Shown piece by piece: positions 25,156 to 28,643 of a stretch of 64,000 nt of DNA. Position 1 is the first letter of the stretch; each line of letters begins with the position of its first letter. Made by a program: the position numbers and the translations under genes. Source of the DNA: Medakamo hakoo (lineage: Eukaryota; Chlorophyta; Trebouxiophyceae; Coccomyxaceae); the NCBI GenBank assembly GCA_026636295.1, contig CP089450.1:372001-436000 (forward strand). Direction: 5' to 3'. The notes below the pieces were generated by a model. It made no database searches. It was not told where the DNA came from and saw only the letters and a program-made list of their open reading frames with translations.

Positions 25156-25772
25156 TCACACCTTGGCCGCTGCCAACCCCGCCGCGTCCGGGCGGGCCAG
25201 GGCATCCAGCGCCGCGTCCACCCGCCCGCCCACTTCGCGCAGGGCCCGCTCCGCGACGGGGCGGGTCAAGTCGGCGGACTCCATGACGAGGGAGACGTCG
25301 GCGTCGGCCAGCTTGATGGAGGCGAGGGCGACCTCACTGTGGGGGGTGTGCGTGGATTGTGGGGAGTGGTGGGCGTGCGTGCGTGAGAAAAAAACGGGTG
25401 AGAAGGTCGTGGCCAGGTCTGATGTCGGGCGCAAGGGGGAAAAAACGCACCGCTTCTTTGCCAGCTCGCGCGAGGCTTTGGCCTGGGCTTGCAGAGAACT
25501 GAACGCGGCCTGGACTTTGGCAGCGTCCACCTCCGGGCCGTCGCGCTGTTGTTTGTGTGAGTTGAAGGGGGAGGGGCGTGAGTGCCGGGCGGCCGTGAAA
25601 ACATGCGGCGAAACTCGCCGGCCCTCCCCACCCTCCGTCCCAAGCGCACGTTGTCATTCAGCGCGTCCATGGCCTTCCGTTCTTCCTTGCGAGTGGCGTC
25701 GACTTCTTCAACATCTTCCGCCGGGCCTTCCTCATCGTCCTGAGAAGCGGTGGGCGGGTTGGGCGGCGGCAT
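25156..25772 (-). CDS. HYPK: HYPK-like NatA-associated protein with C-terminal UBA-like domain
   Basis: Exons 25650-25772, about 25451-25545 and 25156-25336 give 132 residues, close to human HYPK. The N terminus is acidic and disordered (DDEEGPAEDVEEVDATRKEE). A helix follows (VQAAFSSLQAQAKASRELAK), then the hallmark region REVALASIKLADADVSLVM, ESADLTRPVAERALREVGGR and VDAALDALA, which aligns with the HYPK C-terminal UBA-like bundle (KVTIKKEDLELIMTEMEISR in human). HYPK binds the ribosome-associated N-terminal acetyltransferase NatA and tunes it. All junctions restore the family order. The start faces TMA7 across 120 bp, so two small translation-linked proteins probably share a promoter. Confidence 0.82.
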
Positions 25773-25892: not shown

Positions 25893-26327
25893 ATGCCCGG
25901 CAAGGAAGGCGGCAAGGCCAAGGTGCGGCGCCTGCACTCATCGCGCGACGGAGTTGGGCAGCGATAGGAGAGGCGTGGGAGCGCGGCGAGACGCTCTCCC
26001 GTGTCCGCGCGCCATCAGAGTCTCTCTCAACCTGATTTCTCGTGCCTGGCATCCGGCCGCGCTCTCTCTCACACAACGGGCGCCCGCCCCGCCCCACGCC
26101 CCCCCGCTCCCCACACCACTCACGCGCGCACTGCGTGCCCACCCACCCACCCATTCACCCCCCCCACACAACAGCCCCTCAAGAAACCCAAATCCAACAA
26201 GGGCGAGCTGGACGAGACGGACCTGGCGTTCCTCCAAAAGAAAAAGGAGGAGGCGGCGGCCCTGAAAGCCCTGAAAGAAAAAGCCGCGGGCAAGGGCGGC
26301 TTCGCCAAGGCCAAGGGGTCGAAATGA
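25893..26327 (+). CDS. TMA7: TMA7, translation machinery-associated protein 7
   Basis: Two exons (25893-25922 and 26175-26327) give a 60-residue protein: MPGKEGGKAK, then PLKKPKSNKGELDETDLAFL, a Lys/Glu coiled coil (QKKKEEAAALKALKEKAAGK) and a GGFAKAKGSK end. This matches the full length and layout of TMA7/CCDC72 (MSGREGGKKKPLK..., DEEDKAF, KAAGKG). The yeast protein co-purifies with ribosomes. Exon 1 is just 30 bp and the 252-bp intron is several times longer. The stop codon TGA (26325-26327) overlaps the ATG of the next frame, discussed as a possible two-gene message. Confidence 0.9.
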
Positions 26328-26509
26328 GCGGCGGAAACGAACAAGGCGGCGACTGCACGGCGTGCCGGGTGGTCGGCGCGGGCGCGTGCTTTGGCGCGGC
26401 GGCCTGGGTGGCTGCGCCGCTGCCGCCGGGAGTGGGCGCGCCGCGGCCGGTGAGGCTGGCGGCGGCGGCGGTGGCGGTGGGGCTAGGAGTGGCCCGCCTG
26501 CTCGTGTAA
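26324..26509 (+). CDS. DMAC1/DUF4536-like small membrane protein overlapping the TMA7 stop
   Basis: 61 residues starting MSGGNEQGGDCTACRVVGAG. The pattern Asp-Cys-x2-Cys-Arg just before a first membrane helix (VVGAGACFGAAAWVAAPL), a short Gly/Pro turn and a second helix (VRLAAAAVAVGLGVARLLV) is the plan of DUF4536 proteins such as DMAC1/TMEM261, which help assemble the distal membrane arm of mitochondrial complex I. Its ATG (26324-26326) overlaps the TMA7 TGA as ATGA, with G at -3. No intron or separate promoter is evident, so translation may depend on re-initiation or leaky scanning on the TMA7 transcript. The family match is short and remembered, not aligned; the alternative is a chance open frame in GC-rich 3' UTR. 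Confidence 0.55.
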   Translation: MSGGNEQGGDCTACRVVGAGACFGAAAWVAAPLPPGVGAPRPVRLAAAAVAVGLGVARLLV

Positions 26510-26739: not shown

Positions 26740-28643
26740 ATGCAGGCCGCCACCCTGCGCGGTCGGGCCGGCCCCGTCCTTCCCGCGGCGCCCACTCGCC
26801 GCCCGGTCGTTCGTGCGGCCGCCGCTCGGGCCGCGCTCGCCGAACCCCCTTCCACGCCGTTTGCCAAGGATGCCTCTCACTTGGAGGCATGGGCGCCCGA
26901 TTCGTGGCGCCAGCGCACTGCTCACCAGCAGCCCGCGTGGCGGGACAAGGGCGAGCTGGAGGAGGCCACCAAAGAGATTGCCCGCATGCCGCCCCTCGTG
27001 TTTGCCGGCGAGTGCCGCAACTTGCAGGACCGCCTGGCCGCCTGTGCGACGGGCGAGGCGTTCATGCTACAGGGTACGTGGACAGAAAGAGGGTGTGGAG
27101 GGCGGCGACGCCGTGCGGCGCGCTGGCGGGCGCCGTCGGCCCGTCATTTTGCCCCGACCGCGCGTTTTTTCGCTTCTCCATCTCCTCCGACGCGGCGCCG
27201 GCCGCGTGCGAAAAACGGCGCGCCACGGGTGGATGGGCCCGCCTCCCACGCCTTTCCATCGCTGCCATGACTGCCTGAGACGCGTGTTCTCTCGTCTGAG
27301 GGAGTGGAACGGCCAGGAAATAGCGCCGATTGAGCGGGCTCGCCCCCGAGAGAGCGCCCGCGGCTCGTGGCCCGGCGGCTCCCCTCCCTCCTCATCCCCA
27401 TCCCAACCCTCTCACCGCCCGCCCCACGCACTCCCCTCCACTCAATCGCCCCTCAGGCGGCGACTGCGCCGAATCCTTCTCCGACTTTTCCGCCAACCGC
27501 ATCCGGGACACGTTCCGCGTCATCCTGCAGATGGCGGTCGTCATGATGTTTGGCGGCGGCGTGCCCGTCGTCAAAATCGGGCGCATGGCGGGCCAGTTTG
27601 CCAAGCCGCGCAGCGCCGACAACGAGACCGGCCCGGACGGCACGTCCCTGCCCTCCTACCGCGGCGACATCATCAACGGCCCCGAGTTCACGTCCGAGGC
27701 GCGCGTCCCCGACCCCTGGCGCCTGGTCAAGGCCTACAACCAGTCGGCCGCGACGCTCAACCTGCTGCGCGGGTTTGCGACCGGCGGGTACGCGGGCCTG
27801 CAGCGTGTCATGCAGTGGAACCTGGACTTCATGGCCAAGTCCGACGAGGGGCGGCACTACGCCGACCTGGCCGCCCGCGTGGACGAGGCCATCGCCTTCA
27901 TGCTGGCGTGCGGCATGGACCACTCGGCCGCCATCATGCGGGAGACCGAGTTTTACGTCAGCCACGAGTGCCTGTTGCTGGACTATGAGCAAGCCCTGAC
28001 CCGGGAGGACAGCACGACGGGGCTGTGGTACGACTGCTCCGGCCACTTCCTGTGGTGCGGGGAGCGGACCCGCCAGCTGGACGCGGCGCACATCGAGTTC
28101 CTGCGCGGCGTCGGCAACCCGCTCGGCGTCAAGGTGTCGGACAAGATGGACCCGGGCCAGCTCGTCGCCCTGATCGCCGCCCTGAACCCGTCCAACACGC
28201 CCGGGCGGCTGGCCGTCATCACCCGCATGGGCGCGGCCGGCGTCCGCAAGGCGCTGCCGGGCCTGGTGCGGGCGGTGAGCGCGGCGGGCCAGGTCGTCAC
28301 CTGGGTGTGCGACCCGATGCACGGCAACACGGAGACGGTGGCCGGCTTCAAGACCCGGCGGTACGAGAACGTGCGGGCGGAGGTGGAGGCCTTCTTCGAC
28401 GTGCACGACGAGCTGGGCACCGTGCCCGGCGGCGTCCACCTGGAAATGACGGGCGACGACGTGACGGAATGCCTGGGCGGCGGGTCGGACGTCGGCGCGG
28501 GCGACTTGGACAGCGCCTACCGCACGCAGTGCGACCCGCGCCTGAACGCGGCCCAAGCCCTGGAACTGGCGTTCTACGTGGCGTCGCGGCTGCGGGCGCG
28601 GAAGGACCGCATGCGGGCGGCGGGCGGGATTCCGGTGGCGTAA
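26740..28643 (+). CDS. Class II DAHP synthase (3-deoxy-D-arabino-heptulosonate-7-phosphate synthase), plastid
   Basis: Exons 26740-27073 and 27457-28643 give 506 residues, the size of plant enzymes. The first ~40 residues are a transit peptide ([20 protein letters not shown]). The mature enzyme has [10 protein letters not shown]-type entry, [35 protein letters not shown] right at the exon junction, [12 protein letters not shown] with the substrate-binding Arg/Lys, [68 protein letters not shown], and [15 protein letters not shown]. It joins phosphoenolpyruvate and erythrose 4-phosphate as the first step of the shikimate pathway. The 383-bp intron is one of the longest here. The start lies 230 bp after the DMAC1-like frame. 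Confidence 0.95.

What the first reader, a model, noticed from the sequence alone, without database searches (positions are those of the whole stretch)
25893..26509. Overlapping stop/start (ATGA) between TMA7 and a DMAC1-like frame: candidate eukaryotic dicistron
The TMA7 TGA shares two bases with the ATG of a 61-codon frame encoding a Cys-x2-Cys, two-helix protein like DUF4536/DMAC1. TMA7 is complete and well conserved, so the second frame cannot be a C-terminal extension. Polycistronic nuclear transcripts are reported in green algae, but a direct stop-start overlap, the arrangement used for coupled re-initiation, would be unusual. It would link a ribosome-associated protein with a complex I assembly protein.
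Basis: partly seen in the sequence, partly recalled or inferred. Interest (0 to 1): 0.78.

Follow-up and report, generated by a model that had tools for sequence, protein, structure and literature searches.

The report
TMA7–DMAC1-like overlapping algal gene pair
In the tiny green alga Medakamo hakoo, the gene for a small ribosome-associated protein runs straight into a second small gene for a probable mitochondrial membrane protein, most likely making two proteins from one messenger RNA in a way already described for green algae.

Summary
TMA7 (25893-25922 + 26175-26327) ends in a TGA sharing two bases with the ATG of a 61-codon frame (26324-26509). That frame is very probably a gene: five unnamed homologues were found, and it resembles DMAC1/Dbi1 (CxxC, two predicted helices), though its PF15055 score stays below Pfam's cut-off. 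The genome is Medakamo hakoo. No ATG lies between the two starts, in exons or intron, so a ribosome that skips the TMA7 start next meets the second ATG. Both pairs used as in vivo models of bicistrons in Auxenochlorella (TOM22_SDHAF3, OST4_FAM32A) are also adjacent here. I reached no DNA from a relative to test conservation of the overlap; predicted starts of three of five homologues suggest it is not deeply kept. No RNA data were available. Verdict: probably a genuine bicistron, a new member of a known kind; coupled re-initiation is unsupported, not excluded.

The parts
25893..25922 (+). TMA7 exon 1 (ORF1 start)
   Evidence: spliced translation MPGKEGGKAK...; PF09072 64 bits, cut-off 27
25923..26174 (+). 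intron of TMA7, GT..AG, 252 nt, contains no ATG
   Evidence: splice sites inferred from homology, no RNA data
26175..26327 (+). TMA7 exon 2 with TGA stop at 26325-26327
   Evidence: only PF09072 match found in the genome, C3:398169-398324
26324..26327 (+). ATGA: ORF2 start overlapping ORF1 stop
26324..26509 (+). ORF2, 61 codons plus TAA, DMAC1/Dbi1-like CxxC two-helix protein
   Evidence: 5 homologues; PF15055 19.7 bits, below cut-off; only match found in the genome; helices 11-29 and 41-60 in a low-confidence model

Best explanation
A bicistronic nuclear locus of Medakamo hakoo. One capped mRNA carries a short ORF1 (TMA7, 60 aa) and, with its ATG overlapping the TMA7 stop, ORF2 (61 aa), a DMAC1/Dbi1-like mitochondrial inner-membrane protein with an N-terminal CxxC that probably helps oxidise or assemble inner-membrane proteins. 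Most ribosomes start at the first AUG and make TMA7; some scan past it, meet no other AUG in 176 nt of mature mRNA, and start at the ORF2 AUG (leaky scanning). Shown here: anatomy, homology of both products, absence of intervening ATGs, and presence in this genome of two adjacent pairs matching published bicistrons. Inferred: the single transcript, the leaky-scanning step, mitochondrial location and redox function.
For: Exact anatomy. TMA7 64 bits. ORF2 homologues P0001-P0005 with a conserved domain and variable N-terminus; 5 of 6 aligned members hit PF15055 at E<=1; the family profile reaches a tick DMAC1 (E=0.058 in 5.8 billion sequences), hhalign probability 96% over 28 columns. GC by codon position in ORF2 is 0.82/0.66/0.85, lowest at position 2 as in TMA7 (0.59/0.41/0.82). 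ATGs on the + strand between 25780 and 26520 are only 25893, 26324 and 26510. OST4 followed after 53 nt by FAM32A and TOM22 followed after 116 nt by an SDHAF3-type LYR protein with no ATG between the starts are present: 2 of 2 A. protothecoides model pairs sought. Published mechanism, short ORF1, short inter-ORF and reported stop/start overlaps. One Trebouxia TMA7 gene model, of 32 TMA7 proteins read, carries a fused tail that weakly resembles this ORF2 family.
Against: No transcript, ribosome-profiling or proteome data. The TMA7 start has A at -3 (CAACCTACC ATG C), not an obviously weak context, and ORF2 has G at -3. Absence of ATG in 176 nt has probability 0.40 by chance (0.10 over 428 nt with the intron). 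Synteny in relatives not shown: scans of viral and bacterial/archaeal contigs confirmed none; the Trebouxia tail is marginal (shuffle p 0.04-0.07 for the six members together, 0.40 against the window protein alone; hhalign probability 1.7%). PF15055 score under the curated cut-off. The CDC26_TTM3 bicistron was sought and CDC26 not found.
Confidence: 0.62

Rival explanations
1. Same bicistronic mRNA, but ORF2 is translated by termination-coupled re-initiation: ribosomes ending TMA7 at TGA step back and restart at the overlapping AUG.
For: ATGA geometry; precedents in viruses (influenza B UAAUG overlap; PMC3035654, passages) and in bacteria and archaea (PMC6728339, start of abstract in listing). 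Authors of PMC11892635 do not completely discount some re-initiation.
Against: No TGGGA core of the calicivirus-type tethering motif in 26201-26330; in vivo work on two A. protothecoides bicistrons shows the inverse ORF1/ORF2 relation expected of leaky scanning (PMC11892635, passages); overlap apparently not kept in three of five homologues by their predicted start residues.
Confidence: 0.13
2. ORF2 has its own monocistronic mRNA from a promoter inside the TMA7 intron or exon 2; the overlap is only genome compaction.
For: Compact surroundings: 120 nt between the HYPK and TMA7 starts, 230 nt from the ORF2 stop to the inferred start of the next gene.
Against: Two other close pairs in this genome match loci that are exclusively bicistronic in A. 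protothecoides. Promoter signals inside TMA7 were not examined.
Confidence: 0.12
3. Splice-switched use: mRNA that keeps the intron turns TMA7 into a 24-codon upstream frame (stop ending at 25967), after which the next ATG is that of ORF2, so intron retention selects ORF2.
For: Intron has no ATG; in-frame stop at 25965-25967.
Against: Purely sequence-based; no RNA data; such mRNA may be prone to decay (general knowledge).
Confidence: 0.05
4. ORF2 is a chance frame in GC-rich DNA and is not translated.
For: 84 of 150 ATGA sites in the window open a frame of 61 codons or more; Pfam score below cut-off.
Against: Five homologues conserved over the domain with a variable N-terminus, and independent resemblance to DMAC1.
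Confidence: 0.05

Closest known systems
Green-algal bicistronic loci (Duenas et al., PMC11291117 / PMC11892635; earlier Gallaher 2021, recalled), e.g. TOM22_SDHAF3 and OST4_FAM32A of Auxenochlorella
   Same: Short ORF1, very short or overlapping junction, no ATG between the starts, products of unrelated function; two published pairs are also adjacent in this genome.
   Different: TMA7 and DMAC1 are not named in the two main texts; one-transcript status untested; ORF2 (61 codons) far below the published ORF2 medians; ORF1 start context not clearly weak.
DMAC1 / yeast Dbi1 (YDL157c), Pfam PF15055
   Same: CxxC before the first of two predicted transmembrane helices; DC..CR..G motif shared with a tick DMAC1.
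   Different: Very short (61 aa against 118 in yeast Dbi1), Pfam match covers only the first 21 of 47 positions, score under the cut-off.
Termination-reinitiation with overlapping stop/start (influenza B M1/BM2, caliciviruses)
   Same: Stop and start codons overlap.
   Different: No UGGGA core upstream, cellular nuclear gene, overlap AUGA rather than UAAUG.

Membership tests
Green-algal bicistronic locus | Two ORFs, each with own start and stop and with homologues | tested here: met
Green-algal bicistronic locus | Short ORF1 and short inter-ORF distance | tested here: met
   ORF1 183 nt, stop and start overlap in ATGA; published medians: ORF1 291 and 357 nt, inter-ORF 40 and 183 nt
Green-algal bicistronic locus | ATG depletion before ORF2 | tested here: inconclusive
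   none in 176 nt of mature sequence or 252 nt of intron, but chance alone gives this with 0.40 (mature) and 0.10 (428 nt); 5' UTR not mapped
Green-algal bicistronic locus | ORF1 start context weaker than ORF2 | tested here: inconclusive
   -3 A for ORF1, -3 G for ORF2, neither has G at +4; no genome consensus built
Green-algal bicistronic locus | Both ORFs exclusively on one transcript; translation of both | not testable with these tools
   no RNA or proteome data
Green-algal bicistronic locus | Colinear pair in other algae | tested here: inconclusive
   no relative DNA reached; Trebouxia fused gene model marginal
TMA7 (PF09072) | Curated Pfam score | tested here: met
   64 bits, cut-off 27
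DMAC1/Dbi1 (PF15055) | Curated Pfam score (27 bits) | tested here: not met
   19.7 bits, E=0.001; hence called DMAC1-like, not filed as a member
DMAC1/Dbi1 (PF15055) | CxxC before the first of two TM helices | tested here: met
   C11, C14 invariant in 6 of 6; helices 11-29 and 41-60 in a low-confidence model, where the first helix begins at the CxxC
DMAC1/Dbi1 (PF15055) | Mitochondrial inner-membrane location, disulfide activity | not tested
   known for yeast Dbi1 (passages)
Termination-reinitiation (TURBS type) | UGGGA-type motif upstream of the overlap | tested here: not met
   none in 26201-26330; pairing with the algal 18S rRNA not examined

The most novel reading that the evidence does not exclude
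A cellular nuclear gene pair in which the AUGA overlap itself is used: ribosomes finishing TMA7, a ribosome-associated protein, restart on the DMAC1-like ORF, coupling a translation factor to a mitochondrial assembly factor.
Probability: 0.1. Interest if true: 0.65.

Novelty: new member of a known kind. Interest (0 to 1): 0.33.

Why it matters
It adds a probable pair to the green-algal bicistrons and indicates that one of the smallest green-plant genomes shares the system. A stop/start overlap with no ATG in between is a clean natural test case: leaky scanning and coupled re-initiation predict opposite effects of removing the TMA7 start codon. It also proposes a coding place for a very short DMAC1-like protein that gene finders expecting one ORF per mRNA could miss.

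Tried and rejected
TGTAA as the poly(A) signal: one copy lies over the ORF2 stop (26505), but only 9 occur in the 64-kb window on both strands, so it does not look like a general signal here and I do not use it.

Scans for related DNA: viral contigs with the DMAC1-like profile (28 pattern matches, none confirmed) and the TMA7 profile (600, none confirmed), bacterial/archaeal genome contigs with the TMA7 profile (589, none confirmed). These collections hardly hold algae. PDB search with the ORF2 profile gave nothing at E<=1. Searching the genome with PF15055 itself gave no hit at E<=0.001, although the protein search found the one copy. CDC26 (PF10471) was not found (its controls rang in none), and a motif look in the loci of two CYTH genes gave nothing clear, so the CDC26_TTM3 bicistron is not shown here. 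The Trebouxia tail was tested by hhalign (probability 1.7%, E=0.029) and 3000 shuffles (maximum over six members p 0.05 local and 0.07 semi-global; sum 0.04 in both; against the window protein alone 0.40 and 0.42): suggestive only. The 2021 PNAS paper on algal polycistrons is not held, and supplementary data sets could not be opened, so I cannot say whether TMA7/DMAC1 is in the published lists.

Full report
What is there. The window is contig C3:372001-436000 of a 15,638,232-base, 16-contig assembly. Contig C1 is 1,473,234 bases, the maximum contig length in Table 1 of the Medakamo hakoo genome paper, which also gives 16 non-organellar contigs and 72.7% GC (PMC9871001, passages); the window is 70-82% GC in 4-kb steps. 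The organism is therefore Medakamo hakoo, a trebouxiophyte green alga. TMA7 lies at 25893-25922 and 26175-26327, with a 252-nt GT..AG intron. Its TGA (26325-26327) overlaps an ATG (26324-26326) that opens 61 codons ending in TAA at 26509.

Is the second frame a gene? Length and overlap prove nothing at this GC: 84 of 150 ATGA sites in the window start a frame of 61 codons or more. Homology does better. A search of 5.8 billion proteins found P0001, P0002 and P0003; the profile of these with the window protein also found P0004, P0005 and P0006 (7991 candidates scored, the list being cut there). In the alignment of the window protein with P0001-P0005 the Cys-x2-Cys, the following Arg-x-Val-Gly and much of the second helix are invariant while the N-terminus varies. 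All four members of the first alignment and five of six of the second hit PF15055 (DMAC1/Dmo2-like) at E up to 1; P0005 reaches it only at E=8.3. The window protein has E=0.001 and 19.7 bits, below the cut-off of 27. P0006, a tick protein labelled distal membrane-arm assembly, has 46.1 bits to PF15055; hhalign pairs the family with it at 96% over 28 columns. The structure model has two helices, 11-29 and 41-60, at mean pLDDT 66 and pTM 0.33. The protein is DMAC1-like; formal membership fails on the curated score. One match was found in the genome for it and for TMA7.

What it does. Yeast Dbi1 (YDL157c), whose human homologue is DMAC1, is an inner-membrane protein that through its CxxC takes part in disulfide formation in Tim17, with Tim22 and Cox20 as further substrates; DMAC1 was found with complex I assembly intermediates (PMC11850723, passages). 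By inference the algal protein is a minimal version of that oxidoreductase/chaperone.

How it is expressed. On the plus strand between 25780 and 26520 there are three ATGs: TMA7, ORF2 and one just after the ORF2 stop. Scanning ribosomes that pass the first AUG meet the second next, whether or not the intron is removed. Under a first-order model this absence has probability 0.40 for the 176 nt of mature sequence and 0.10 for 428 nt with the intron, so it permits leaky scanning but does not prove selection for it. The start contexts (A at -3 for TMA7, G at -3 for ORF2) do not show the weak-then-strong pattern reported as a trend.

Known background. Duenas and colleagues (preprint PMC11291117, parts 1 and 2 of 11 and passages; PNAS version PMC11892635, part 2 of 8 and passages) curated 36 bicistronic loci in Chlamydomonas and 43 in Auxenochlorella protothecoides (PNAS figures), with short ORF1, short inter-ORF and depleted ATGs, and showed at two loci in vivo that ORF2 output falls as the ORF1 start is strengthened; they do not wholly discount some re-initiation. 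The preprint says that some A. protothecoides loci contain overlapping ORF1 stop and ORF2 start codons; the PNAS main text has no 'overlap'.

Does this genome share the system? I sought the two pairs used as models in A. protothecoides. FAM32A lies 53 nt after an OST4 frame with one inferred intron (PF10215 31.7 bits). A LYR protein matching PF13233, which I recall as the SDHAF3-type family, starts, at an inferred first exon, 116 nt after a TOM22 stop with no ATG between the two starts (PF04281 34.2 bits). So 2 of 2 are adjacent; that they share one mRNA here is inferred. A third published pair, CDC26_TTM3, was not shown: CDC26 was not found.

Conservation of the overlap. No relative DNA could be reached. 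By second residue, P0001 and P0002 (Met-Ser) could keep ATGA, while P0003 (Met-Gly), P0004 (Met-Val) and P0005 (predicted to start Val-Ile-Met-Gly) could not if those starts are right; P0003 has a later Met-Ser at residues 14-15. The exact overlap is therefore probably a local state, as expected if spacing hardly matters, which favours leaky scanning over coupled re-initiation. Among 32 of the 48 listed TMA7 proteins whose letters I read, one, a Trebouxia model (P0033), runs past the usual end into a 39-residue tail ending MGVARAVT, like the GMGVARAVV end of P0005; shuffles give p 0.04-0.07 for the six members together but 0.40 against the window protein, and hhalign gives 1.7%. This is a lead for conserved adjacency, no more.

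In print? One search listed all 13 held papers with at least two of DMAC1, TMA7, TMEM261 and alga; none holds TMA7, so no held main text names both proteins by these words. (TMA7 or DMAC1 with bicistronic, polycistronic and the like; 20 of 981 and 15 of 644 papers listed) showed none with TMA7. The supplementary lists could not be opened, so the pair may already be catalogued.

Verdict. Real, most likely bicistronic, most likely leaky scanning; a new member of a known kind, interesting mainly as a clean test case.

Noticed in passing
25156-25772 (-): HYPK-like gene (UBA_HYPK 39.9 bits on a hand-spliced product) starts 120 nt from TMA7 in the opposite direction, suggesting a shared promoter of two ribosome-associated proteins (HYPK role recalled).
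   Followed up: partly
26740 onward (+): Class II DAHP synthase (PF01474, 576 bits for the stretch 27459-28640); its inferred start lies 230 nt after the ORF2 stop.
   Followed up: partly
L006 minus strand, 1354-1980 (contig C3:601866-604976): A CHCH-like frame (21 bits to PF06747, below cut-off, hand-spliced) ends 9 nt before the ATG of a LYR protein (PF05347 32.5 bits): another candidate bicistron with a very short junction.
   Followed up: partly
L008 952-1332 (+) and L004 minus strand 1749-2091: TOM22_SDHAF3-type (116-nt gap, no ATG between starts) and OST4_FAM32A (53-nt gap) pairs are adjacent in this genome.
   Followed up: yes
protein P0033 (Trebouxia sp. C0005): TMA7 gene model fused to a tail weakly resembling the end of the ORF2 family; possibly an annotation merge of a bicistron.
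   Followed up: partly
window, whole: TGTAA, the usual green-algal poly(A) signal (recalled), occurs only 9 times on both strands of the window, so this genome may not rely on it.
   Followed up: no
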